Assembly: GCA_030248065.1 (NCBI GenBank)
Contig: JASAMV010007337.1
Span: 23,066 to 87,065, forward strand
From: Rhynchonema sp. JSB1_4
Lineage: Eukaryota; Nematoda; Chromadorea; Monhysterida; Xyalidae
DNA: 64,000 nucleotides
Direction of reading: 5' to 3'
This document shows, one piece after another, positions 14,732-47,900 of this stretch; positions within the stretch are counted from its first letter, which is position 1, and the number at the start of each line of letters is the position of its first letter. The translations under genes were made by a program, and so were the position numbers. The notes under the pieces are model-generated. The model made no database searches. It had not been told where the DNA came from and was given only the letters and a program-made list of their open reading frames with translations.

Positions 14732-16256
14732 GTTAATTTTATCGAATCTGGTATTGAAATAATCACTTGGTCAAACACGATAAGTGCCTAGGACATTGTT
14801 GAAAGAAGGCGACCTTTTTGACAAGCTTTGACGATGTGAAAATTGTTTTGTGCGCCCAAGAGTGCTCCATGCGTGTGCTCATGTTTGTGTTATCATCAGT
14901 GCAGTTGCTATGGGCAACAAGCCAGTTGGGTGCGCATGGAAACACTAGCTCCGGCCCAGAGATCGGAAACGGGCCGGGTAAAGTCGGCCAGGCTCGGTCG
15001 TGAAAAGTCCGGCAAGTTTTGGCGTGAGGTCGGCCCGGCCTGGTCGGTCAGCTGTCAAGGGCCACAAAAGCTGAAAAAATCAAAAAGCTAAAAAAATGCG
15101 GGAATTGTCTGCGGAATTCTTCTTTCTTCAAAACGATGACTGGGTGAAAAGGTCTTTGAATGCGCGAAGCGCAAAATTTTTGGTTCAAAAATGGAAGTTT
15201 CCTATAAATTTAGGCGCATTTCCGATCTCTGCTCTGAACAGACAAGGGTGAAACCGTTCTCTTGCATGTTCAGGATAATTCATGTCCACATTATGAACTT
15301 CACACACCACGTCTCATCACAGATTTTATTATGATGCTGTTGCAAGAATTACAAAAATTTTAGAATTATAAATCTGACGATTGATTTTAGGTGGGATTAA
15401 AATATGCACAGAACTTCCACGAAGACAGACAAAATTAATAAAGAAAAATCCGATTTTTGACACGAGCGAAATAATTACCCATAGAATGCTCACCAACCTG
15501 GTGAATGCACTAAATTTGCAGTTAGATCTTAAACCGAAACCTTTGAAGTTAAATTATTGCCGAAAATGCAGATGCAAAACTACAAAACATGGTTAAAATG
15601 GGATCAACGCTACTCGCTGAAGAACTAACGGTGGTGGAAGAGAAGCTATTCACTGATATACATTATTAAATGGTGGTAGGTATTATTTAACAAAACAAAG
15701 AACTTGCCAACTATGTAGCCGTAACGTAAAAGCAGAGCCCATTTCCCATTTTTCGCATAAACTCTACAGATAAAAGGTGCTGCGAGGTTTCCTTTGTAGA
15801 AACATACAATTGAAGTAGCTACATTTCAGACGAATTCGAATCATGCGAAAGTTATGCCACCTGGCACCCGAAGTCTCGCCTCACCCCCAAACTAGCCCAA
15901 AAGCACACACAAATAACATCACGATGATAACAATCGAGGGCAAAAATATAAAAAAACAACAAAACAAAAAAACAATCTCTGCGACTGCGTCCGATTCGGT
16001 GCCTAAATTTGGAACATTTTCTTGTGATCGACTTTTACTTCCATAACGTTTTTGACAGACTTCTATGATCACGAAGCCTGAGTATCTCTCGGAAGCAATC
16101 GCGTGAATGCAACTATAGAGTCAAACATCGTGCCGGTATCAAACTTGCTTGATCACATCGCTTTCACACTCATTTCTTGGATTTATTTGTATCAAGTTCA
16201 ATACCAGCCATCATAATTGTCGGTCGTATCAATATTTCTAATCAACGTATGTCTGT
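14732..16256. other. Intergenic, divergent-family repeat fragment only
   Basis: About 1.5 kb between the start of DYNC2I1 and the stop of LSM12. 14945-15070 contains GGCCGGG-rich sequence resembling the GGGCCGGG MITEs of this window but without clean ends. The rest shows no gene, RNA or repeat I can support. Confidence 0.5.
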
Positions 16257-19200
16257 TCACCCTGAGCTGCCAGTCTTAGATTCAGAGGCTCTGCTGCCAG
16301 CAGATGCTGACTGCGTTGACGGCGGAGGAGCGACTGTTGGCGGTTGAGCAATGCTCGTGCCGTAATTGGCAGCAACAGCACTGGTGCTACTGTTATTATT
16401 GGCAGCAGATTGGGCAACGGACTGCGCTGGTTGGCTACTGCTGCCAGCTGGTGATTGGTCACGTGACGACGTTGATGGGTCCTTGTCTGAGACGGGGGGA
16501 TTGTTGTCGCTAGCTGCTGTTGCGCCCACCGACGACGCGCGACGGGCCTTCTGCTGTTGGTCGTCGGCGTGCTTCTCAATCTGCAACAACACGAATACAT
16601 AATGAAAGAAAGAGCTCCTGTTATGCACAGAATCATAATCAACATTTGCAGGACGCTTTGTTCGCAATTTCGTTTCGGGCGTATTTTGTGATACAGCTGA
16701 CACGCCACTACTTCAGATCAAACACTGTTGTTTAAAATTGGGACTGCAACTTTATCGCAAACTATGGCCCAAACAAAAGTCGACAAAATATGGCCTGCAA
16801 AATAAACACTGCGAAGACAAGCGCCGAACTCACAATTTTGCGAGCGAACGATAACGTATGAGCACCCTTCGAAACATCGATCAGCTGGGCGCAGTCGGCA
16901 GTGTACGGCGGACTGATAATCACTTCGTTCTTCACGCAGATCGAACTGCCTTTCCATCCAACCAGATTTTCGTCAAAGCTGCAAATCACACACGTTCTTG
17001 CTGATTAATTCTCCACTCAGACATTTTACGTGGAAACTTCGTGGCCAGGAAGCCAGAAATTAGCAACTGTTTCAATTTAGTTGAAAAGTCTGGTTTTGCC
17101 TCGCTCGGGCGCAGATCAGATCAGGGTGGTTTTAATGGCATTAGCAAATTTGGAGTTACTGATGCTGAAACGGAGCTTCTATCGGCAAACTTGATGATCG
17201 GTTCGTGCTAATCTCCCTAAAAGTGTATCGCAAGAGCCAACAGGAGTAACCAACGTTTTCTTGAGCGTGCCAAACAAAAGTCGCCCGTCCATACTGACGT
17301 TTGCGGGTGCGATACATCGTTGTTTCGCTTTTTTGGTCTTTTCGAAACGCGCCTTGGCCTGAAAACATGCAAGCCGATTTCTAAACAAGCTCACAAACAC
17401 ATATAAAAACAAATTTCTTTCGGATACTTGACAAATGACAAAAACTAAAATGTTTCAGATTTGATAAAAACGACCAAGCAACCGATTAACTAACAGCGTT
17501 GGGCAAGGCCGACGGCAGATTAGGCACAAAGTCGGGCACGGGCGCGCGCACTTCCTTCACCGATTTGACGCCGTGCAAATTCAGGATCACAATCTCGGAC
17601 GTATCATTCGTCTGACTCGTTTGCGTGCCTGAATCATCAAGGGGAGCTTGAACGTTATTTGGCCCCTGAAATTTGTGCTTATACGACGCAATCAATTTCT
17701 AATACCTTAAATCATGGTAAAACTATTATGTTGTTGTGTGTCTTTGGTGCCGTTCGTCTCTCAAAGACACACAACAACATGATTGCATTACGGCACTGCC
17801 ATCCCGGCAACATCAAAACTTTTATGAGCAAGATACGAAGAACTGGATGAAAATCTTGCACCCAACCATTATTTAGCGCAAATTACACAACGCAAAAAAT
17901 ACAAAGCAGCATGTTCTGGAAGTATTTCATTCTCAAGCCGCCGATCATGGTTACGGTCCCATGACAAAAACAGACATCATTAACCGTAACAAGTCCGAGG
18001 TACAGTGTAGTCCCTGGGGGCAGGGGGTCCCCCCTCTGGTAAAGTATATGCCTCTCAGGTGGTACATTATCCTCTATCTCCCCCTCCGGGTACACTATCT
18101 CCTCCAATTTTTGCTTAAAATAGGCATTTTAGGCCTAAAATGGACATTCTTAGGCCAAAAATGTGTGATTTTTTGGTCAACGTTCTCAAAAGTCGCCAAA
18201 ATACCCTTTTTCTGAAGAATGTTTTTTAAAAAGGGACAAAAATAGGTCAAATTTTCCACCTCAAAAAAGGACTTTTTCTTGAATTTGGGTCTTCCCGCTT
18301 CCCCCGTCGGGGGTACACCCCTCCGAAAAAAAACGGCGGGTCCGCTATCTCCCCATCCGGATCAGGAACTACACTGGGCAGGGATGCCCTTCTATTTATT
18401 TTCTTTGGCATTGATTTCTCGAGGAATAGGCAAGGAACAGCGGAAATGCTGAAGGCACGAAAGAACCGAAGCAATAGCGAGACTGCGTTCCCGCTGTTCT
18501 TTCATTCCGCCACGGAACTGTTTTGCGCAAAACGTTTTATTGGTCCTCGGAACGAGTGTACGCGCACCTTGATTTTCCCACCCCCACCCGGTCTTGTAAC
18601 TATGCTTTCATCACGTAATTTACCTGCATGATATTATGCGTCATTGGAGGGCAATAAAACAAACAAACAAACAAACTATGACGGAAGAAAAAACAAAAAG
18701 AAAGCAAATGTGAAGGTCAACTAACGCAAAGCGAGCACACGCGATTGTCGTTCGAACGTCAAAACCTCGCCCTCGTACGTCTTGTCATGGCAGGTGACGC
18801 ACTGCAATGAAACCAATTATAACATCAAGTTGATGAAGTTGTTTGTTGAATTCAAGGAAATTTTTATTTTTACATGGGCTGATCAGCAAAACAAGCACCA
18901 GAGATTGAACATCGAACCGACCGCACTCATAACTTTCAAGAATTTAGTTTTTTTAAAAGCTAGTAAATTTTCAAATTTAATAGCCTAAAAGCTACCAAAC
19001 ACATTCGAAAAAATGAATTTTAGATGAGTGTTATTCTCTCTGTAATGGTGTTTACAGGGGTTGAATCTTCACTTATTTGCCTGACTGTATCATCAATGAC
19101 TGTGTCAATGGGGTCTTGGGGTCTATTTTTGGGGTTCTGTTTTTTTTCAATAGGTCCAATTTAGTTGTTCTATTTTGGTAGGGGGTTCAATTTTTGAGGG

Positions 19201-19335
19201 GTTTCTGTTCCCGACAATATGGCACCCATTTTGAAAAAATAAACCCTGACCAACCTGCATGGTAGCACCGGTGGGGAAAACATCATTGGACGGCACTTGG
19301 GCGGGGCTTTGCGGTGCGGCGGCGTGATCATTCAT
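16257..19335 (-). CDS. LSM12: LSM12 homolog
   Basis: LSm-type RNA-binding protein; LSM12 family members bind ataxin-2-type partners and mRNA. Exons 5' to 3': 19255-19335, 18726-18801, 17495-17646, 17255-17358, 16834-16978, 16257-16580; every phase agrees, total 882 nt, 293 residues, longer than vertebrate LSM12 (about 195) because of the tail. The LSm half reads CVTCHDKTYEGEVLTFE and VLAL, then ILNLHGVKSVKEV; the anticodon-binding-domain half has KARFEKTKKAKQRC, KNEVIISPPY and FARKIIEKHADDQQQKAR. The C-terminal 85 residues are Ser/Ala/Gln/Pro-rich and low complexity. Start chosen at MNDH, nearest to the family N-terminus; an in-frame ATG six codons upstream is possible. Four of five donors are GTTGGT or GTTAGT. 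Confidence 0.92.
17727..17781. repeat. Perfect 18-bp-arm hairpin in LSM12 intron
   Basis: ATGTTGTTGTGTGTCTTT and its exact complement flank a 19-bp loop, inside LSM12 intron 2. Origin unknown. Confidence 0.75.
18003..18376. mobile_element. hAT-like MITE, family A, copy 1
   Basis: Ends CAGTGTAGTTCCTGG and CAGGAACTACACTG; internal sequence matches the other family A copies (22303-22695, 28113-28478, 39865-40246), with TTTTAGGCCTAAAA palindromes and CTATCTCCCC stretches. No matching 8-bp duplication is left at this site, so it is older or rearranged. Lies in LSM12 intron 2. Confidence 0.85.
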
Positions 19336-20025
19336 CTCCAACAGACCAGTTGTCATTTGAATCGAGAGTATGCAAGACTTTATCAATTGTTGTTCAAAAA
19401 CTGTGTTCACGAAAAATACGAAAATATCGTCTGATTAGGTGGGAACTTCTCCGCTTGTGTATTGACAGCTCTGCAACACAAAAAAATTCGTGAACAACAA
19501 AACGAGTCGAATAAAAACGGGCCACCAGCCATGCCTGAGCTGAGCATCGACTCCAAATAGTAATTTATGTTCGGAATAACTCGATTTTATCGATTTGACT
19601 GAAAACGACGGGCGAACAGCACGACATGCTGTAATATTTTGAAACTTATGCTATTTGCTTTGCAGAACTAGAAATACCACAGCAACCTTATTTTTTACGC
19701 CATATTTTAGTTTAATTGCTTCGTGATTCTCAAAAAACTCAAAAAAAATCTCAAAAAAATTCTCAAAAAAATATTTGGCGATGATTTGATTCTTTTCAAA
19801 ACCTCGATGGAGGAAGGACGCAATCAGTCAGTACTTTGGCTTTGGCAGCAGAAATGAAATCGGCCTTGCAGCTGATAACGCGCTCAAGCCTCGTAATCGT
19901 AAGTTGCGATATCAAGGTGGAGTAACCAATGTTACGATGCACATTACTATCACAATGAATAAGTTTAGTGACTTCAAAGTTGAAATCTTTAGTTTTTTTT
20001 GTCATAGAGCTCAATAACAAACAGT
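19336..20025. other. LSM12 upstream region
   Basis: No gene seen. The LSM12 promoter should lie in the left part. A-rich (CTCAAAAAAA)-type runs at 19735-19775. Confidence 0.4.
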
Positions 20026-20382
20026 CAGAGGTGGGAATCGGGCCGGGCCGGGCCGAGGTTTCCGGCCCGAACGGTCGGGGCGAGCCGGGGTGGCCGGCCC
20101 GAAAATGCCCGACATCAACAAATTTCAATAAAAAATCGTTATTTTTTTAGGCTAAATTTGCCAAAATTTCTCACGATTCTGCAAATCAGTACCGACTTCC
20201 ATTTCCATAATTATCAGGTATTTTTAAACAAAAAAACAGTAATTTTTGCACCAAAAAATTGCTTCAAGATGTTATCAGAAAAAGTCGAGCCGAAAAAATC
20301 GGGCCGGGCCAGGCCGATCCCCGGACCTCGTCGGGCCGGGCCGGGCCGAGATAACGGTAACCCGGCCCGATTCCCACCTCTG
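20026..20382. mobile_element. hAT-like MITE, GGGCCGGG family E, copy 1
   Basis: Ends CAGAGGTGGGAATCGGGCC and GGCCCGATTCCCACCTCTG, with a perfect 8-bp target duplication CAAACAGT (20018-20025 and 20383-20390). The 5'-CAG ends and 8-bp duplication are hAT hallmarks. 357 bp, GC-rich ends and AT-rich middle, no transposase. Confidence 0.92.
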
Positions 20383-20820
20383 CAAACAGTATTATTATTA
20401 TCAATCGTAACTTTGAGGTCAAGGAAATCAGCCAGAGGTCGCAATCGGGCCGGCCCGGGCCGGGCTGCTTTTTTGGGCTTTTGGCTCGGGCCGGACCGGG
20501 CCAGGCACCCCGGCCCGAAGCTTCTGAAGTGACTTATTTTACTGAAAAAGTAGGGATTTTTTTGTCAAAAAGATACTAAAATTTCTGACGGATTCGGCAT
20601 GTAAGTGATCAGTATTGTCTATCTGACGACTTTTTCATGGAAAACAATCAGTGGTGTGGCTACCCAGGCGTGCAATCAACCAACTGTACCACCAGAAAGG
20701 CCCACAGCTAGGCCTGGGCACAATACCACTTTTGACACCCAATACCAATACCCAATACCAATACCGACCCTGTACCAATACCCAATACCAATACCAAATT
20801 GGTGACCCAATACCAATACC

Positions 20821-21272
20821 CAGTGTTGGAGGTACTCTGGAGGGGGGATACCTACTGTACCGCGCTCAGAGAGGGGGGATACCTACTGTACCAGAGCCGA
20901 TGGCCTGGGGGGTTATGTACCTAGGGGGGGGGTTTGGGGGGGTTGGGGCGGGGTTAGGTTTTGGGGTGAAAATTTTTTATGTGTTTATTATGTGTGGAAT
21001 CGTGTGAAAACGTAGTATTTGCGCGCGTAGCGCGCGAATTTCGGGTAATTTGAGGTAAAAACCACTGATTTTGCACTAATTTTGGCCATTTTGGTCAAAA
21101 ATTGGCACTTTTGGGGCAAAATAGGGGGGATACCTCCTGTACCGGGGTGAAAATCGGGGGGATACCTACTGTACCATGCCAAACATCGGGGGGGGGGGGT
21201 ACCTACTGTACCAGGCGAGGGGGGATACCTACTGTACTGGGGGGGGGGCTACCCCCCCCACCTCCAACACTG
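20821..21272. mobile_element. hAT-like MITE, family C, nested in the satellite
   Basis: Ends CAGTGTTGGAGGT and ACCTCCAACACTG; 8-bp duplication CCAATACC (20813-20820 and 21273-21280). 452 bp, with repeated GGGGATACCTACTGTACC units and a GCGCGCGTAGCGCGCG hairpin. Sits inside the left arm of the GGTATTG palindrome. Confidence 0.92.
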
Positions 21273-21300
21273 CCAATACCCAATACCGGGTGAGACCCAA

Positions 21301-21740
21301 TACCGTAAAAACCTAAATAGAAGGGGGGCTCTATTAATTCACTGACCCCATTTTGGGGGGCTCTATTACGGGGGGCTCTATTCCGGGGGGGCCTGTCCTC
21401 TATTAATTCACTGACCCGAACCTGAAAAATTGTTCCCAGAAATACCCCCCAAAAACCCCTAAAAATGGGTTTGAAAGGATGTTTTTCGCTTGTAATCGCA
21501 TTTATGCGTGTCTATTCGTCAATTAGAGGCGTATTATGTGCTCTGAACGAACAACAAACGTGCATAAATGTACCTGTGCACCACTTATCAAGCCTTAATA
21601 CACTACTGTATAGGGGATGTTACTTAAGGGGGGCTCTATTCCGGGGGGGGGCTCTATTAATTCACTGACCCCTTTTTGGGGGGGGCTGTATTACGGGGGG
21701 GCTCTATTCCGGGGGGGGCTGTATTTAGGTTTTTACGGTA
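21301..21740. mobile_element. MITE family B (TACCGTAAAAACCTAAATA ends), copy 1
   Basis: Inverted ends TACCGTAAAAACCTAAATA, 440 bp, TA at each border. Interior has GGGGGGCTCTATT repeats and TTCACTGACCC. Same family at 29263-29705 with a partial tandem copy to 30054; broken ends at 22168 and 23270-23295. Confidence 0.88.
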
Positions 21741-22302
21741 TCCAATACCAATACCCAATACCAGATCAATACTACTGAAGTGCCTGGTATTGGGTTTGGT
21801 ATTGGGTTGGTATTGCTATTGAGTATTGGGTATTGGGTTGGTATTGGTATTGGGTATTGGGTATTGGTCTTAGTATTGGTTTGGTATTGGGTTTTTGGTC
21901 TGGTATTGGGTTGGTATTGGGTTTGGTATTGGTTTGGTATTGGGTTTTGAGTCAGGTATTGGGTTTGGTATTGGTTTGGTATTGGGTTTTTCAGGATTAG
22001 TATTGGGTATTGGTTTTGACCCAATACCTGGGCAAACCCAATACCAATACCAGGCCAGCTTCAATACCAATACCCAATACCAGAATTAGACACTGGTATT
22101 GGTATTGGGTGGTATTGGTATTGGGTATTGTGCCCACCCATACCCACAGCCACAATCGACCTACCTACCATAAAAACCTAAATAGAGCCCCCCTCGGAAT
22201 ATCGATTGAAAATAACACCGGATTTGGAACGCTCTCGCTTATGGGTGGGCACAATACCCAATACCCAATACCAATACCACCCAATAGTAATACCAATACC
22301 AG

Positions 22303-22695
22303 CAGTGTAGTTCCTGGTCCGGAGGGGGATAGCGGACCCCCCGTTTTTTTCGGAGGGGGAGATAGTGTACCCCCGAGGGGGGGGAAGGGGGGGGGGGAAG
22401 ACCCAAATTCGGGAAAAAGTCACTTTTTGAGGTAGAAAATTTGACCTATTTTTGCCCCTTTTTGGAAAAAATTCTTCATAAAAAGGGTATTTTAGCGACT
22501 TTTGAGAACATTGACCTGAAAATCACACATTTTAGGCCTAAAAATGCCCATTTTAGGCCTAAAAATGGCCATTTTAGGCAAAAATTGGGGGAGATAGTGT
22601 ACCCGGAGGGGGAGATAGGGGGATAGTGTACCACCCGAGGGGGAGATAGCGTACCCGAGGGGGGGACCCCCCCCTCCCCCCCAGGAACTACACTG
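22303..22695. mobile_element. hAT-like MITE, family A, copy 2, nested
   Basis: CAGTGTAGTTCCTGG ... CCAGGAACTACACTG with perfect 8-bp duplication AATACCAG (22295-22302, 22696-22703), both made of host satellite sequence. It occupies the centre of the GGTATTG palindrome. Confidence 0.93.
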
Positions 22696-23794
22696 AATAC
22701 CAGTGGTTGGTATTGGTATTGGGTCTAATTCTGGTATTGGGTATTGGGTATTGGTATTGAAGCTGGCCTGGTATTGGTATTGGGTATTGGTATTGGGTTT
22801 GCCCAGGTATTGGGTCAAAAGCAATACCCAATACTAATCCAGGAAAACCCAATACCAAACCAATACCAAACCCAATACCTGACTCAAAACCCAATACCAA
22901 ACCAATACCAACCCAATACCAGACCAAAAACCCAATACCAAACCAATACTAAGACCAATACCCAATACCCAACACCAATACCAACCCAATACCCAATACT
23001 CAACCAACCCAATACCAAATCCAATACCAGGCACTTCAGTAGTATTGATCTGGTATTGGGTATTGGTATTGGTATTGGATCTCACCCGGTATTGGTATTG
23101 GGTATTGGTATTGGGTCACCAATTTGGTATTGGTATTGGGTATTGGTACAGGGCCGGTATTGGTATTGGTATTGGGTGTCAAAAGTGGTATTGTGCCCAG
23201 GCCTACTCTCGCTGAGAAACGGGTAATTTTTTGAAAATGGGGTCAGTGAATTAATAGAGCCCCCCTGCCCCCTTGTATTTAGGTTTTTACGGTACTGTAC
23301 CGGCCGAGCTAGGGGGTGGGGGAACAAAATTTTTTGTCTAAATTTTGATGAAAATGTGCTCTAAAACGCCAATTTCGCGCGCAGCGCGCGATTTTTCGCC
23401 CATTTGGAGTGAAAAATATCGATTTTATACCATTTTGAGCCAAAAATAGCAACCTACTGTACCAGCCGGGGGCGGCTACCTACCTACCTACTGTACCGGG
23501 ATGGCGCGTCAATCTAATCTGCCTACCTACTGTACCTAAGGGGGACCCCCCCCCCAGCCACACCATTGAAAACAATTTATTTTCAACCAAAAAAAAACAG
23601 ACAACAGATTCAAAAATCGCAAAAATTATGACAAAATTGGCTTAAAATCTGAGCCAAAAATTCGGGCCGGGCCGGAGATTTGGAGGTTCGGGTCGGGCCG
23701 GGACGGGCCGGGACGGGCCGGAGATTTAGGGGCTCGGGCCGGGCCGGGCCGGCCCGCCGGCGAAACCCGGCCCGATTGCGAGTTGCGACCTCTG

Positions 23795-27769: not shown

Positions 27770-28112
27770 ATCATATCAAACCAGACCCAACCGAATCCGA
27801 AGCCGCACCGACGAGAAGACTCAATACAATAACCCGGATTAAACGGACCGCCAAGTGCTGGGGGAAGACTCAAAACAAATAAAGCGTGTCAAAAAATTAA
27901 CCGGATTGTAAGCCGTATTAGCCGAATCGTTGTGTGCTGAAGGCAACGGTCATTATCTAGATGGGGTGTACTTGGGGACAGTTCGCTTATATCCTGTCCT
28001 GATATCAGACGGTGTATCACCAGCCCACGAACGTTTACAAATGTGTTGCAAATCAAACAGCTTACTGAACGTTACGCGGTCTGGAGGGAAGGATCAGTAC
28101 CGTGGTATCGAG

Positions 28113-28478
28113 CAGTGTAGTTCCTGGTCTGGAGGAGGAGATAGCGGACCCCTCGTTTTTTTCGGAGGGGGAGATAGTGTACCCCCGAAGGGGGGAAGAC
28201 GCAAATTCAGGAAAAGTCACTTTTTGAGGTAGAAAATTTGACCTATTTTTGCCTCTTGGAGAAAATTCTTCACAAAAAGGTATTTTGGCGACCTTTGACA
28301 CCATTGACCTAAGAATCACACATTTTAGGCCTAAAATGCCCATTTTAGGCCTATGCCTATTTTAGGCAAAAATTGGGGAAGATAGTGTACCCAGAGGGGG
28401 AGATAGGGGGATAGTGTACCACCTGAGGGGGAGATAGCGTACCCGAGGGGGACCCACCTCCCCCCAGGAACTACACTG
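28113..28478. mobile_element. hAT-like MITE, family A, copy 3
   Basis: CAGTGTAGTTCCTGG to CTACACTG, 8-bp duplication GTATCGAG (28105-28112, 28479-28486). 366 bp. Confidence 0.93.
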
Positions 28479-28615
28479 GTATCGAGTCTTCCACCATCCT
28501 GCCACTATACCACGACCATGACCCTCAAATTCCGTTCGCTGATCGGCCCAGCAGCCGGATCAAAGAAAAAGAAAAAAATCCAAAAACGACAAAACGTTCG
28601 ATCGAAACATCGAAA

Positions 28616-30086: not shown

Positions 30087-30960
30087 TCAGTCAACGACGG
30101 CTGAGAATTTTGTTGAAATATGGCGAGAAACTACGTCTCGACCACGTGAGTTTAGTTTAGATTTAAAGGCCGCAATTGAGGCAGCAGAGACGACGCCCTC
30201 TGGTAGCCTGTTCCAGAGGTCCACGACACGATAGGCCCAGTATCCGGACAAGTCTGCACCCGCGCCATGGACTCGACACAAACTGTGGGAGTGCCCTCGG
30301 GTTGGGCGGCCGGTGTCACGAGATGGAAAGAAGGATTCCTTGGTTACCCCAGGTATGAGACCACGAACGACTTTGTACACGAGCACAAGATCGTTCACGG
30401 TCCGGCGATAAATTAGAGGGTCTAAATTTAGGGCATGCAAACGCTGTTGGTAAGACAGTGTCTGCATGCCAGGTAAATAGTATGTGAACCGACGTTGAAT
30501 TTTTTCAACGTTTTTAGCTAAAGTGACATTTTGAGGGGACCAAATGGACATGGAAAATTCCAGTAAAGGGCGGACATAGGCCAAATAAAGTTTTCGGAGG
30601 AAGTCGCGATTTCGACTGTGAAAGTTTCGGCGGATGGTCTTCTCCATTCTGCTGGCGTCAGCCACAATTTTACCAATATGTGACTCAAACTTTAAGTTTT
30701 GTTGGTCTATTAAGACACCCAAGTCCCGGACATGGGGTGGTGAAATAATTTGCTCATTCCCACAAAAATAGACAGGGGGGACTTGGGGGCGATTCCCAAG
30801 CCTTACTGTGACGCTCTTATGGCTGGCAAGAGCCATGCCATTTGCAGAGAGCCAACTAATGACCGCATTTATGTGACACTGGAGGATTTTGTGATCTGCA
30901 GCACTACGGATTTCCCTGTAAATTTTGATATCATCAGCGTAGAGATAGGATCAAAGGAAA
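30087..30960 (-). mobile_element. 5'-truncated non-LTR retrotransposon, reverse transcriptase C-terminal part
   Basis: One open frame of about 285 codons to TAA/TAG at 30087. It begins inside the polymerase domain at the catalytic box YLYADDIKIY (about 30925-30948), continues with WLSANGMALASHKS, LGVLIDQQNLKFESHI (thumb-like region) and YVRPLLEFSMSIWSP, VEKIQRRFTYYLPG and WNRLPEGVV, the classic C-terminal signature of CR1/Jockey-type LINEs. Everything 5' of the YADD box is missing, as usual for dead-on-arrival insertions, yet the remaining frame is intact, so it is probably young. Confidence 0.88.
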
Positions 30961-31192: not shown

Positions 31193-33356
31193 ATGTCCTC
31201 AGTTTGGAATTTTATCAAACGACATCGCGGCAAGATCGTGACTGGTGGCGTAGTTGTGGGCGGCGTTTGGCTGGCAAAACGGCTGTACGACAATAATCGG
31301 GTGGCAATCGATCATTGGCTGCAACAACAACAACAGGGAGACATTGGTGGGACGACGCAGTCGCAGACGTTTTCGGTCGAGGTCGGTTATGAATGGCCCG
31401 GCTGGACCGTTCGGACCCGGCCCGAATTTTTTGGGTCACGTTTTTCCCCGATTTTATTCAAAATTTTTGCAATTTTTCTGAACCTATTTTTCGGTGAAAA
31501 ACTGATTGCTTTCAATGAGAAAGTTGTCACATGGACAAGTGTACTGATCACTTACTTGCCGAATCGGTCAGAAATCTTAGTATTTTTTGACTAAAAATCA
31601 CTATTCTTTCGGTAAAAAAGTCACTTCAGAAGCTTCGGGCCGGGCCCGGCCCGGTTGAGACCTCTGGTTGTGAAGGTTTGAAAATTACTTTCAAGGTTTC
31701 TGTGTCCCTCGCCCATGGTCCGTTGTTTCAGACCCGCAAGCACTATATTTTCGACAGTCAACAGCGAACTTGTGACGACTCAATAATGGAACTCATTCCG
31801 GACGTTGCCGCCAAAATAAAGGTTGGTTATTTTGAAAAGGTGTACCTGGGCGAAGGCTTAGCCCTTGGCCCCTTCTTGATTTTCGGCCGGCATCACGATT
31901 TCGGTCCAATTTTGAGTGGAGATCGGGCCAATTAGATTTAAAAATCAAAATTCCACAAATGCTGGAAAAAATATTCCCAGGATTATTTTTAGGAGTTGCT
32001 GGACGTAGAAAGGATCGCTGACCGCCTGAAAGAAGAAAACGGCAAAACACAAATGACGAAAAGCGAAAAGTTGGAATTGTGGAACGAGATGAAAACCGGC
32101 TGCATGGCCAGACTGGTGTTGGCCAGTCATGCATACGCTATATTGATTGTCACACTGAAAGCTCAGGTTCGGTTGATTTTTAGTTTCTCAAAAGGAGGTT
32201 GCTTCTGCAAAAACACGGTTTTATTGATTCAGGTGAGCATTCTATCAGCCGAGATTTTCACCGACTCGCAACACCACAATCAACAACGTGCGCTCAATCA
32301 ATCAACGTTCGAGTCAATAAGTCGACAATTCTGGTCAACATTGGGTTACGGTAATGATCAGGATCAGTCAGAGACTCCGATTCGCACAAGGAGTCGAACC
32401 AGCAGTGCTGCCGTCGATCCGGTATTTTGTTAAAGTTAAAAGTGTTCAGGCAAGGCAAGTTGGCGATGTTTATAAACAATTTTGTTTCTTGTGTCACAGG
32501 TGGCGCAACAACTGTTCCTGCAGTGCATTCAGTACTTCATCACTCGTGGCATTCAAACAATGAATCAAAATGTGCATGGCATTGTCGCTGAATTAATGCA
32601 GGTATGGGTGCTGTCAGCTTTTTTAATCCAATCTCTGCTAATAGTGCAGTTCAATTGATAAGCTTTTTGACAGACGAAGAATAATCCACCAAATTTGACG
32701 TTTGTTAGATCAAGTTTCAAAAAACGTGATAGCAATGGCAAGTGAATGAACCTGATGGTATTCATGTCAAAACAGTAAAACCGTCTTCGATCATGTTTGT
32801 CTCCCGTCCCATGTTCTGGGTATGCCTGATTGCGAGTTGCAAGAAAGGCTATCCTGTATTTGCAAAATGCAATAATATCCCCCAAACCAACTCATTTGCA
32901 TTGTAGCCACTCGCATTAGACGAATGTCTAACCAGCGCACGTATCGGGGAGCTCATGGTCTCGGCCCGGCACCGTCTGCGTTCAGTGCTCCCTGTCTGCA
33001 CCGGGCTTGTGGTGCCCCTGCCCTCCGACATTCAAACTTCAACGTCAAGTCTGCCCCATTACGCCGGACTACAACCATTGTTGGATCGATTGAAACATGT
33101 GTTGGAATCGAGCGAATGCGTTCAATTGATCGATCATTGTGTGATCCGATTTGAACAGGAGATCGCGCAGAATCTGTTTTCTGACAACCCTGAGTCATCA
33201 CGGCCATTAGCCAAATTGATCCCGATTCTGGCCGGCGATGGATTCGCACGTGTGTCCAGCACCGTGTTTGACTCGCCCATTCAGGACATATTGATCGGCA
33301 ATCGATTGCACAATTTCTGTGTTGCGACATTTGAGAGTGGAGTGTTGGTGTTGTGA
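31193..33356 (+). CDS. PEX3: Peroxisomal biogenesis factor 3
   Basis: Peroxisomal membrane protein that docks PEX19 and inserts membrane proteins. Exons 31193-31381, 31732-31821, 31993-32166, 32233-32421, 32500-32601, 32907-33356 (TGA); all phase 0, total 1194 nt, 397 residues (human about 373). N-terminus MSSVWNFIKRHRGK matches the PEX3 signature, followed by the membrane anchor GGVVVGGVWLA, then KHYIFDSQQRTCDDSIM (the conserved NQRTC-like block), ARLVLASHAYAILIVTLKAQVSIL, DPVAQQLFLQCIQYF, and the C-terminal RPLAKLIPILAGDG. Residues after position 45 include a Gln run. Donors GTCGGT, GTTGGT, GTTCGG, GTATTT, GTATGG: three of five are not A/G at +3. A possible poly(A) signal AATAAA lies at 33796. 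Ends 600 bp before the 1-kb foldback element. Confidence 0.95.
31378..31666. mobile_element. MITE family E, copy 4, filling PEX3 intron 1
   Basis: Right end GGGCCGGG...GAGACCTCTG matches family E; the left end is degenerate (CGAGGTCGGTTATGAATGGCCC). Interior matches 20510-20640 in reverse. No 8-bp duplication is seen. Its left border coincides with the PEX3 exon 1 donor (GAG|GTCGGT). Confidence 0.65.
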
Positions 33357-44993: not shown

Positions 44994-47900
44994 ATTATTC
45001 GAAACGCAACGTAGGTAGTATCTTTCACCCACTTGCGCTGTCTGCTTATGTTTCACGCGCGAATGACATCTGGGCAAGTGGCTGTCTCGTAAACTAACCT
45101 GGCGGGGTGTGTACCCGTGATCATTGAGACGGGACCGCTGGGGTGAGACTAGTCCATTGCACTTCGGGGCTGGTTGACCTCCATCGCTACTCCGAGTTGG
45201 GGTAAGCGGACCGCGAACTTTTTGCGTAGCGGGGCTGCGTTCGCGCGGCCCTGGTCTGGCTATCTATTGTCGTGAAATTCGTTGTGGTGATCCGAAAATG
45301 TGGCGGTCGTGTCACTGTAACTTTTAAGGTAAAATTTTCCAATCGCAATTTTGTGTAGGTGATCGACGACAGCGTGAGTGCGTCCGAATTCACGAGCCTG
45401 TCGGTCGACGACTTTCAACGTGCCGAAACCGTCGAATCGGTGAACCTTCGAGAACTCGGATTTGAAGTTCCTGATGATCCGTTGTTAGCAGCGGGAAAGA
45501 GTGAAGGTAAATGGCAGACTTTTTATTTTGTAGGCCCAGGGAATTTTGATGGTTGACTTTAAACGATAGCTATCTATTACTTTAGCACCTGAATAAAGCA
45601 TGACCACGTTTCTGTCGTCTCTTGATCACGTGACTTATGTATTCAGGATTTTTTTGGTTTGACTGTCAAACCAAGAACTCATGTGACCAAAACAAGTCAG
45701 ATCGCAAAGCTTTATGCCGCTCAGAGAAACTTATCTAATCCCATTTTATTAAAATTTTATTCAAAATCCTAATCCTGATTCATTCAGGTGACATTGCAAT
45801 CGACGATCTCCAGCGTTTCGTCAAGGAGTCCAATCAAGTTGCCCGTAACGCCGTCCGTCTTTCCTACCGTCTGTGGCCGGACGGTCGCATTCCGTACATC
45901 CTATCCTCCAAGTACGGGCCGTATTCACGAAGCATCATTGCGAAGGTGCGTGTGTGAGGTCGGATCCAAAATTGATGGTCGAATACGATCCGACCGGCCT
46001 AGCTGCTAGTCAAATGAGACATTTTCCGATCTGATCCGATCAAGTTGATTTGATCGATTCGATTCAGTCATAAAACTTATTGGTGATTCAAAATTGGAAA
46101 CGGGCCGATCACCAACCTTGACACGCACAACCTCCCAGATCATACATAAATTTCAAAAATTTGGACAATTGTCAAATTTGATCACGTGTAAAAGGCAAAA
46201 TCACAATAATTTCGACTCAATGACAACAATCTATCGTGAACCGTCCCACCCATTGCAGGCAATGCAACGTTTCCACGAGGAGACGTGCATTCAGTTTGTG
46301 CCGAAGACCAGCTATGACGATGACTATCTCAAGATCATACCTGACGACGGCTGTTACTCGTTGGTCGGACGCACGGGGGGCTCGCAACCGCTCAGTTTGA
46401 CTGCCGGTTGGTGGAATATAATGGTGTTTTGCGTCTTGTGCTGGCTATCTGGAACATCCCTGGCGTACTGACAGTGACCTACACAATCTGTGAAAACATG
46501 ACGCAACCACGGGAACCAAAAACACGTCACACCACTGTATTAGATGTGCTATACGATTGTGTGTGTGTCAGATACGGTACCCGACCCAATCACCAGTATC
46601 AAACTATCGGCAGTGATCGGGTCGGATCTGCCTTGTCACGTGACCTTTTGTGTTCTCAACACTGAAGCAAATTGTGACTTTCTTCCGACCAAATATCGGT
46701 CACAAGCTGTTAGATAACGTTCATTCACTTCTTTATCATATAGGATTTTCCCATTTCGTCACTCAAGTGTTCAGACGTAGTCTAGCTAGATGATGTTTCA
46801 CAGGTTGTATCGACACGGGCACCATTGTTCACGAGCTGATGCACAGTGTCGGTTTCTTTCACGAACAATCCCGATCCGACCGTGATGATTGGATAGACAT
46901 CCAGTGGTCGAATGTGATGTACGGCGCCAAGGACCAATTCGAAAAGTACAGTCTGTACACGATCACACATTTGGATGAGGAGTATGATTATGGAAGGTGC
47001 GATGCGATCATATTGGTTATTATTTTCCGACTTTAAAATGTAGCTGATCGGATAGAACTGGTCTGGTCACGGTTTGAAAATGCCGTGTTTATAACCACCC
47101 CAACCTGATGTTTCAGCATCATGCACTACAGTCCGTACGCGTTCAGCCGTAATGGACGCAAGACAATCGTCGCTCTGAAATCGGGCGGCTCAGCGATGGG
47201 CCAACGACGGGACTTCAGCTCGACCGACATCCGTAAAGTCAACAAACTCTATAAGTGCCCGTCATCGTCCGGCTCCGGGCCCGTCACCCAGGGTCCGTCA
47301 CGCACCACCACCCCCACCCCGTCAGTTAGCACCAAGGAGTGTGAGGATCAGGCCAGTGCTGCACGCTGTGTGATATGGAGCTTCCTCGGTTACTGCAGGA
47401 GACGGGATGACGTCAGGGCCCTGTGTCCCTACACGTGTGGCGCGTGTGATGAAGTAAAGGTACGGACACCTGTGTTATGATCTTGGCATGTTCTTCTGCG
47501 TGTCAAGCATTGCGCGCTTTATTCAGTAATATCTGCGCCAGTCAGCCTGATGCATTATCGATTTTTGCGCGTTTGTAGAGGTGTGCATCGCAAACCGGCC
47601 AAGCAATCGTGAATATTTATATATTGATAGTACGGGCTATGCTACAACACATGAAATCATTATTTCAGACTGAGACGACGACCAGGTCGACCACCACCAA
47701 GCGTCCAACAACAACAACTACTGCCCGTCCGATCACTCCCGTGGTGGTTGTCAAACCGACCCCCGACGCAGACAGCACGTCAAGCGATTGTTACGACAAA
47801 AACAAGTCATGCGCCAGATGGGCCGCGATGGATTACTGTAACTCGGGCGCCTACTCAGTGTTCATGACGGTGACGTGTCCCCGTTCGTGTGGCAGATGTG

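What the first reader, a model, noticed from the sequence alone, without database searches (positions are those of the whole stretch)
45091..45254. U1 snRNA with U6-to-A change, matched by GTTRGT 5' splice sites in the same genome
The U1 RNA is full length, all four stem-loops and the Sm site are intact, and the 5' end reads AAACTAACCTGG. Nucleotide 6, which pairs with intron +3, is A instead of the near-universal (pseudo)U. Such a U1 would pair perfectly with CAG|GTTAGT. I tallied 41 introns in six genes whose exons are anchored by homology and phase (DYNC2I1, LSM12, PEX3, ITFG2, astacin, acyltransferase): +3 is T in 14, A in 12, G in 12, C in 3. Eleven of the 14 T cases are GTTAGT or GTTGGT; four of five LSM12 donors have T. 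In most animals +3 T is only a few percent. Both halves of the base pair therefore appear shifted together: a compensatory U1/5' splice site system. Hand tally; the direction is strong, the exact percentages are not.
Basis: partly seen in the sequence, partly recalled or inferred. Interest (0 to 1): 0.95.

Follow-up and report, generated by a model that had tools for sequence, protein, structure and literature searches.

The report
Second U1 RNA beside unusual introns
In an unnamed nematode genome, two U1 splicing-RNA genes carry a changed letter in the part that reads intron starts, and the intron starts sampled have largely lost the usual letter preference there; the two facts fit together, but whether one caused the other is not shown.

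Summary
The U1 gene at 45091-45254 is real and its nucleotide 6 is A. It is not the only U1: of 10 hits, 8 have the usual U6 and 2 (this one and a paralogue on contig C137) have A6. Both A6 genes have an upstream block like that of other U1 genes. This copy has one change in its Sm heptad; the C137 copy has none. Proteins place the animal among nematodes.

The intron claim holds in an independent set: 58 of 147 donors in 16 conserved gene loci have +3 T. But T is near intronic background: +3 has lost constraint (0.05 bit) rather than shifted to T. GURAG donors are 17 of 147, GTAAGT 1, GTTGGT 24.

Tests of the compensatory reading are mixed. For: T is favoured over C twofold (p=0.008), T sites need less support elsewhere than C sites, and 30 donors pair fully at +1..+6 with A6 U1 against 17 with canonical U1. 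Against: T sites need +5G as much as G and C sites do; +4G is unexplained; the model tests depend on the model.

Best reading: A6 is a minor second U1 that widens +3 tolerance. Expression is untested.

The parts
45091..45254 (+). U1 snRNA gene, A6 variant
   Evidence: Rfam RF00003, 106.9 bits, full model 1-166, E 6.1e-26
45096..45096 (+). nt 6 of U1, A instead of U; faces intron position +3
   Evidence: sequence AAACTAACC; 8 of 10 hits in the assembly have T here, 2 have A
45045..45070 (+). proximal-sequence-element-like block, -46 to -21
   Evidence: CTTATGTTTCACGCGCGAATGACATC, like the block at the same distance before other U1 copies and, more loosely, before U2 copies (compared by eye); function inferred
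45119..45128 (+). stem-loop I loop GATCATTGAG (U1-70K site), altered; same in both A6 copies
   Evidence: alignment A1; consensus recalled and visible in the Rfam line
45156..45162 (+). stem-loop II loop ATTGCAC (U1A site), intact
45218..45224 (+). Sm heptad CTTTTTG, first A replaced by C
   Evidence: sequence; 7 of the other 9 copies read ATTTTTG
18720..18725 (-). LSM12 donor GTTAGT (+3 T)
   Evidence: spliced alignment to human LSM12, one flank weak
17489..17494 (-). LSM12 donor GTTAGT (+3 T)
   Evidence: spliced alignment to human LSM12, one flank weak
17249..17254 (-). LSM12 donor GTTGGT (+3 T)
   Evidence: spliced alignment to human LSM12, one flank weak
31822..31827 (+). PEX3 donor GTTGGT (+3 T)
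   Evidence: spliced alignment to human PEX3, weak flanks

Best explanation
The nematode carries two classes of U1 snRNA: a majority with the usual ACUUACC reading end and a minority (this gene and a paralogue on contig C137) with ACUAACC. A6 can pair with U at intron position +3. Canonical U1 reads +3 A (Watson-Crick) and +3 G (wobble); the A6 U1 adds +3 U; +3 C is read by neither. Together they let +3 drift to near background composition, so donors such as GTTGGT and GTTAGT became common and GURAG rare. Shown: the genes, their promoter-like blocks, the donor statistics, the complementarity. Inferred: that A6 U1 RNAs are made, assemble with Sm, 70K and U1C proteins, and bind +3 U donors in the cell; and that A6 came before or with the relaxation.
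For: Two A6 loci, identical at 139 of 164 aligned columns, keep nt 6 A and the same altered stem-loop I loop, which speaks against a sequencing error; the tree leaves their relation unresolved. Both have the promoter-like block, while U6-type copies C5667 and C1907a have a clearly degraded one. C137 has a standard Sm heptad and U1A loop.

Donors, 147 GT in 16 gene loci: +3 A31 C15 G43 T58 against 25.4, 29.1, 39.7, 52.8 expected from GT inside the same introns; only C falls short; T against C OR 2.13, p=0.008. Mean support at -2A,-1G,+4R,+5G,+6T: A 2.77, G 3.60, T 3.74, C 4.13; T against C p=0.046, G against T p=0.36. Donors without -1G: GTTAG 6 of 10, GTCAG 0 of 9, p=0.011 in the lenient set; 3 of 7 against 0 of 7, p=0.19, in the strict set. 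Full pairing at +1..+6, wobble allowed: A6 30, canonical 17 of 147. In a canonical-plus-one-variant mixture with Turner energies on 138 donors, U6A ranks first of 33 single changes, gain 29.7 log units, next 17.1.
Against: T is hardly above background (58 against 52.8). +3 T donors depend on +5G like G and C donors, unlike A. The mixture result depends on the model: with additive pairing U6A gains 1.3 and ranks 8th; with pairs plus stacks 3rd, behind two changes at nt 11 that fit exon base -3; with stacks only 1st, 29.0 against 27.6 for U6G. With free +3 terms added, U6G (27.1), U5G (26.1) and A2G (13.3) all gain more than U6A (12.2). By count, imagined U1 with nt 5-6 UG pairs fully with 41 donors and CG with 30. 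The strong +4 G, and the rule that +3 C or T goes with +4 A or G (T 38 of 51, C 15 of 15), are not predicted by A6. This copy has a changed Sm heptad and both A6 copies an altered 70K loop. Many tests were run and p-values are not corrected. No RNA data and no comparator nematode genome.
Confidence: 0.45

Rival explanations
1. Plain loss of constraint at +3. Canonical U1 reads all donors through -1G, +5G and +6T and tolerates any +3 base; the A6 copies are incidental variant U1 genes. T beats C because a U-U mismatch is better tolerated than U-C, or because of unseen composition effects.
For: T is near background and +3 carries 0.05 bit, while -1 and +5 carry 1.28 and 1.23 bits. +5G dependence of T equals that of C and G. 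Under an additive model A6 adds almost nothing. U6-type U1 genes are the majority of hits.
Against: C is depleted and stricter than T. GTTAG donors tolerate loss of -1G and GTCAG donors do not, in the lenient set only, p=0.011.
Confidence: 0.37
2. The +3/+4 pattern is set at the U6, U5 or protein stage (U6 ACAGA box, its m6A, SNRNP27K, U1C), not by U1 sequence.
For: +4 shifts to G and +3 covaries with +4, which A6 does not explain; +4 preference is tied to METTL16 and SNRNP27K in yeasts (PMC10581693, passages) and two donor classes to U5 and U6 (PMC11732430, passages).
Against: The two full-length U6 copies keep ACAGAGA. Exons of the METTL16 family (PF05971; that family also rings in 5 of 14 prokaryote controls), one SNRNP27 match and a U1C gene with 30 of its first 40 residues as in human are present. 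Presence is not activity: modification state is unknown, and U5 was not looked at.
Confidence: 0.12
3. The A6 copies are unexpressed or degraded variant U1 genes, and matter for nothing.
For: Sm heptad change in this copy and altered 70K loop in both; that human variant U1 RNAs can be unstable is recalled, with related titles and abstract starts seen.
Against: Promoter-like block kept, U1A loop kept, a stem pair kept through a change on both sides at columns 24-43, C137 Sm heptad normal.
Confidence: 0.06

Closest known systems
Human variant U1 snRNAs (vU1.3/.4, vU1.8)
   Same: Natural U1 paralogues; vU1.3/.4 carry a change in the 5' splice-site reading end, and knockout of either variant alters splicing (PMC13172311, passages).
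   Different: The change there is C-to-T and could let it read AT donors; here the change is U6A and donor position +3 is nearly unconstrained across the genes sampled.
Alternative U1 of the diplonemid S. specki
   Same: A second U1 gene with a changed reading end, which its authors say may be an adaptation to degenerate 5' splice sites (PMC12621601, passages).
   Different: A run of C at the 5' end in a protist; here a single base change in an animal.
Fritillaria borealis non-canonical splicing
   Same: An animal whose introns left the usual rule on a large scale (PMC13326754, abstract and passages).
   Different: Its two U1 versions have identical 5' ends; the authors credit U2AF duplication and m6A and say that a changed U1 was not the route taken.
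Saccharomycotina +4 switches
   Same: Lineage-wide change of a donor position.
   Different: U1 ACUUACC was invariant wherever U1 was found (227 of 230 species plus 9 of 10 outgroups); the switch is not linked to U1 or U6 sequence (PMC10581693, passages).
Compensatory U1 suppressors (Zhuang and Weiner 1986; C. elegans, Zahler 2004)
   Same: A U1 base change compensates a changed donor base, also in a nematode.
   Different: Laboratory mutations against single donor mutations. Seen only as titles in the reference list of PMC11347140; Zahler 2004 is not held.

Membership tests
U1 snRNA family (RF00003) | Sequence and structure score over the family cut-off | tested here: met
   106.9 bits against 69.5, full model
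U1 snRNA family (RF00003) | Stem-loops I to IV | tested here: met
   the whole model is aligned with few non-standard pairs
U1 snRNA family (RF00003) | Sm site A-U5-G | tested here: inconclusive
   window CTTTTTG, C137 ATTTTTG; effect on assembly unknown
U1 snRNA family (RF00003) | U1A loop AUUGCAC | tested here: met
U1 snRNA family (RF00003) | snRNA-type promoter | tested here: met
   block at -46 to -21 shared by eye with other U1 and, loosely, U2 copies; no statistical motif test made
U1 snRNA family (RF00003) | Expressed, capped, in snRNPs | not testable with these tools
   no RNA data
Canonical U1 (as against variant U1) | 5' end ACUUACC | tested here: not met
   ACUAACC, one base changed; so not a canonical U1 but a variant within the family
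Canonical U1 (as against variant U1) | U1-70K loop GAUCANGAAG | tested here: not met
   GAUCAUUGAG in both A6 copies; most U6-type copies here also deviate, GACCACGAAG
Compensatory U1 / 5' splice site system | Changed U1 base and matching donor base both present | tested here: met
   A6 in 2 of 10 U1 hits; +3 T in 58 of 147 donors
Compensatory U1 / 5' splice site system | Matching donor base enriched over background | tested here: not met
   58 against 52.8 expected
Compensatory U1 / 5' splice site system | Matching donor base treated as paired | tested here: inconclusive
   T less strict than C (p=0.046) but +5G dependence equal to C and G; strict-set -1G test p=0.19
Compensatory U1 / 5' splice site system | Both changes arose together in the lineage | not tested
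   no nematode relative's DNA was reachable

The most novel reading that the evidence does not exclude
A natural two-isoform U1 system in an animal: an A6 U1 paralogue, maintained beside canonical U1, opened intron position +3 to U and let a whole genome drift from GURAG donors to GTTGGT-like donors, an evolutionary compensatory change in U1 of the kind that the yeast survey did not find.
Probability: 0.33. Interest if true: 0.92.

Novelty: new variant of a known kind. Interest (0 to 1): 0.7.

Why it matters
The U1 reading end is highly conserved, and two lineage-wide donor shifts studied so far were not matched by U1 sequence changes (PMC10581693 and PMC13326754, passages). If A6 U1 is made and used here, it would be a natural case of donor and U1 changing together, testable with one small-RNA library. 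Even without that, an animal whose +3 carries 0.05 bit in 147 donors and whose donors are GURAG in only 17 of 147 cases (the two donor classes are put at about 1:1 in metazoans in PMC11732430, passage) is unusual and bears on how little a donor needs.

Tried and rejected
Introner origin of GTTGGT: 92 introns compared all against all (blastn, E<=1e-3) share internal repeats but none of the matches starts at an intron end. Further U1 variants at nt 5-6: pattern AAACNNACCTGGCKGG gave 10 places, 8 of them U1 copies with TT or TA; the other two are not U1 by reading. Chaetognath origin: a guess, dropped when CCT1 pointed to nematodes. Loss of METTL16 or SNRNP27K: matches to both families found. GTTGGT in print: one search listed 20 of 21 papers with GTTGGT, splice site and intron; by titles and abstract starts none concerned a genome-wide GTTGGT donor. 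For A6 U1 or an altered +3 in nematodes, the listings (18 of 18; 20 of 33; 4 of 4; 2 of 2; 15 of 46; 11 of 11) showed no report by title and abstract start; most subscription journals are not held. The protein query EEF2+VCP+CLTC and families PF00063, PF01602, PF00225, PF00183 and RF01960 did not complete, so no 18S placement was made. ITFG2 was not recovered in the window.

Rows dropped before counts: of 234 introns called, 31 on duplicate contigs, then 55 for weak or gapped flanks or an ambiguous junction, then 1 GC donor, leaving 147. Contigs C1379 (like C613) and C950 (like C3165) were not fetched; C5359 (a third RPB2-like gene) was asked for and not obtained. Earlier versions of the same growing set: 104 (duplicates still in), 92, 138. 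The model tests used the 138 set and were not rerun on 147.

Full report
What is at the locus. Rfam's U1 model matches 45091-45254 over its full length with 106.9 bits. The 5' end is AAACTAACCTGG, so nt 6 is A. The Sm heptad is CTTTTTG, the stem-loop I loop GATCATTGAG, the U1A loop ATTGCAC. So the U1 is full length and fits the fold, but 'all intact' needs the two exceptions named.

How many U1 genes. The 204-Mb assembly gave 10 U1 hits, 9 over the cut-off (41 of 4243 candidates were scored, so this is a lower bound). Read at nt 6: T in 8, A in 2, the window copy and C137:40934-41096. A pattern scan that left nt 5-6 free found no other kind of U1. The two A6 copies are identical at 139 of 164 aligned columns, no closer to each other than to C1676 (142 of 163 and 143 of 164), and the tree does not resolve their relation; their shared stem-loop I loop suggests one origin or gene conversion. 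Several U6-type copies look imperfect: C1907a and C1907b read ATGGCAC in the U1A loop, C1676 has ATTTTTT at the Sm site, C3984 has a change at nt 9 of the reading end, C2996 is below the cut-off, and C5667 and C1907a have a degraded upstream block. C1349 and C2871 are identical over the RNA. The A6 copy on C137 is thus among the better-looking U1 genes here. That is judgement from sequence, not expression.

Promoters. Before both A6 copies lies a block like that of U6-type copies at the same distance, and the five U2 copies looked at have a loosely similar block there. This was compared by eye.

Which animal. A CCT1 protein joined from the genome finds nematodes first (Ascaris suum 80% identity; 120 of 7993 hits listed). 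CCT6 finds, after two long plant and fish records that score higher at 61-64% identity, Plectus sambesii at 75% (120 of 1964 listed). No listed hit passes 80%, so neither search shows the species itself or a near relative. The 3' splice sites are TTTCAG- or TTGCAG-like, in line with UUUCAG in C. elegans (PMC11347140, passage).

Donor sites. In all, 234 introns were called; 31 on duplicate contigs were dropped, leaving 203; 148 passed flank and ambiguity filters; 147 are GT, in 16 gene loci: CCT1-8, HSPD1, MCM2, 3, 5, 6, 7 and two loci aligned to POLR2B that may be its paralogues. Background is GT inside the same introns, away from their ends. Results: +3 A31 C15 G43 T58 (expected 25.4, 29.1, 39.7, 52.8; 0.05 bit; p=0.031); +4 A38 C27 G58 T24 (p=7e-7); +5 G 123; +6 T 93; -1 G 124. 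Hexamers: GTTGGT 24, GTGCGT 9, GTGAGT 9, GTTAGT 6, GTCGGT 6, GTAAGT 1. GURAG donors are 17, AG//GU 68, both 5, neither 67; PMC11732430 puts the two classes at about 1:1 in metazoans and names C. elegans among the species analysed (passage). The high-T observation holds at stricter flank thresholds (43 of 118, 31 of 87 and 22 of 66, on subsets of the 138).

Tests of the A6 idea. (a) T against C: 58:15 seen, 1056:582 background, OR 2.13, p=0.008. (b) Mean support at other positions: A 2.77, G 3.60, T 3.74, C 4.13; T against C p=0.046, A against T p=1.5e-5; in the earlier strict and lenient sets T against C p=0.033 and 0.002. The order A, then G and T, then C is what two U1 isoforms with A6 as the minor one would give. 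(c) +5G: A 18/31, G 39/43, T 52/58, C 14/15: T is not treated like A. This is the clearest result against A6 being a main reader. (d) -1G: GTTAG donors lack it in 3 of 7, GTCAG in 0 of 7, p=0.19 (strict); 6 of 10 and 0 of 9, p=0.011 (lenient). (e) Full pairing at +1..+6 with wobble: A6 30, canonical 17 of 147, background rates 1.2% and 0.9%; other imagined nt 5-6 pairs such as UG (41) and CG (30) do as well or better by count. (f) Mixture models on the 138 set: with Turner energies U6A is first of 33 (29.7 against 17.1), but this depends on the energy model (1st, 3rd or 8th), and with free +3 terms three other changes gain more. I count (f) as weak.

What A6 does not explain. Given +3 T, +4 is G in 30 of 51 against 27% in background; +3 C or T goes with +4 A or G (15 of 15 and 38 of 51); +3 A goes with +4 T or C (19 of 30) and +7 T in 14 of 30. 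+3 and +4 are not independent (p=3.5e-5). This may reflect helix continuity, U6 contacts, or something unseen.

Other parts of the machine. The two full-length U6 copies keep ACAGAGA. Exons of the METTL16 family, SNRNP27 and U1C are present. The control genomes also ring for PF05971 (5 of 14) and for the U1C zinc finger (1 of 14), so those two families alone are not specific; the U1C gene was read and 30 of its first 40 residues equal human. The first intron of that gene starts GTTAGT.

Conclusion. The link between them is plausible, favoured by some tests and opposed by one good test. I put it at 0.45, against 0.37 for plain relaxation. No comparator nematode genome and no RNA data were reachable, and p-values are uncorrected for the number of tests.

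Noticed in passing
L092 (C5047), U1C gene: The first intron of the gene for U1C, the protein that steadies U1 on donors, starts GTTAGT, a full match to A6 U1; the second starts GTAAGT.
   Followed up: partly
CCT and MCM introns, positions +3 and +4: +3 and +4 are strongly dependent: C or T at +3 goes with A or G at +4, A at +3 goes with T or C at +4 and often T at +7 (GTATGTTT). Not explained.
   Followed up: partly
C2090, C1465, C5537 (CCT7); C3046, C768 (CCT6); L082, L089 (MCM2): Near-identical gene copies on several contigs, perhaps uncollapsed haplotypes or recent duplicates; one MCM2 intron start differs at +3 between copies (GTTCGT and GTACGT). The L089 copy aligns with a frameshift.
   Followed up: partly
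C264:3003-7861 and 15675-20043: CCT8 occurs twice in inverted orientation on one contig, perhaps an assembly palindrome.
   Followed up: no
C933, C478, C3247, C5728: Truncated U6 copies: two that keep the upstream region and match model positions 1-59, one 5' piece (C3247) and one 3' piece (C5728, weak match), beside two full-length U6 genes.
   Followed up: no
window 30087-30950 (-): Open frame of 287 aa that reads like the end of a retrotransposon reverse transcriptase (by eye).
   Followed up: no
window about 20600-23400: Repeated tracts whose frames read as runs such as WYWVLVLG and NTQYQYQ, probably a satellite or mobile-element family; a second phrase there (GGGDSVPP) recurs near 27900-28500 (by eye).
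   Followed up: no
C2090, CCT7 intron at protein position 305: About 20 tandem copies of a 31-base unit inside one intron; matching sequence also occurs in a CCT5 and a CCT2 intron.
   Followed up: no
L016 (C2996:7288-7450): A divergent U1-like gene with U6, a changed stem-loop II loop and 64.3 bits, below the cut-off; its first ten bases are as in the other U6-type copies.
   Followed up: no
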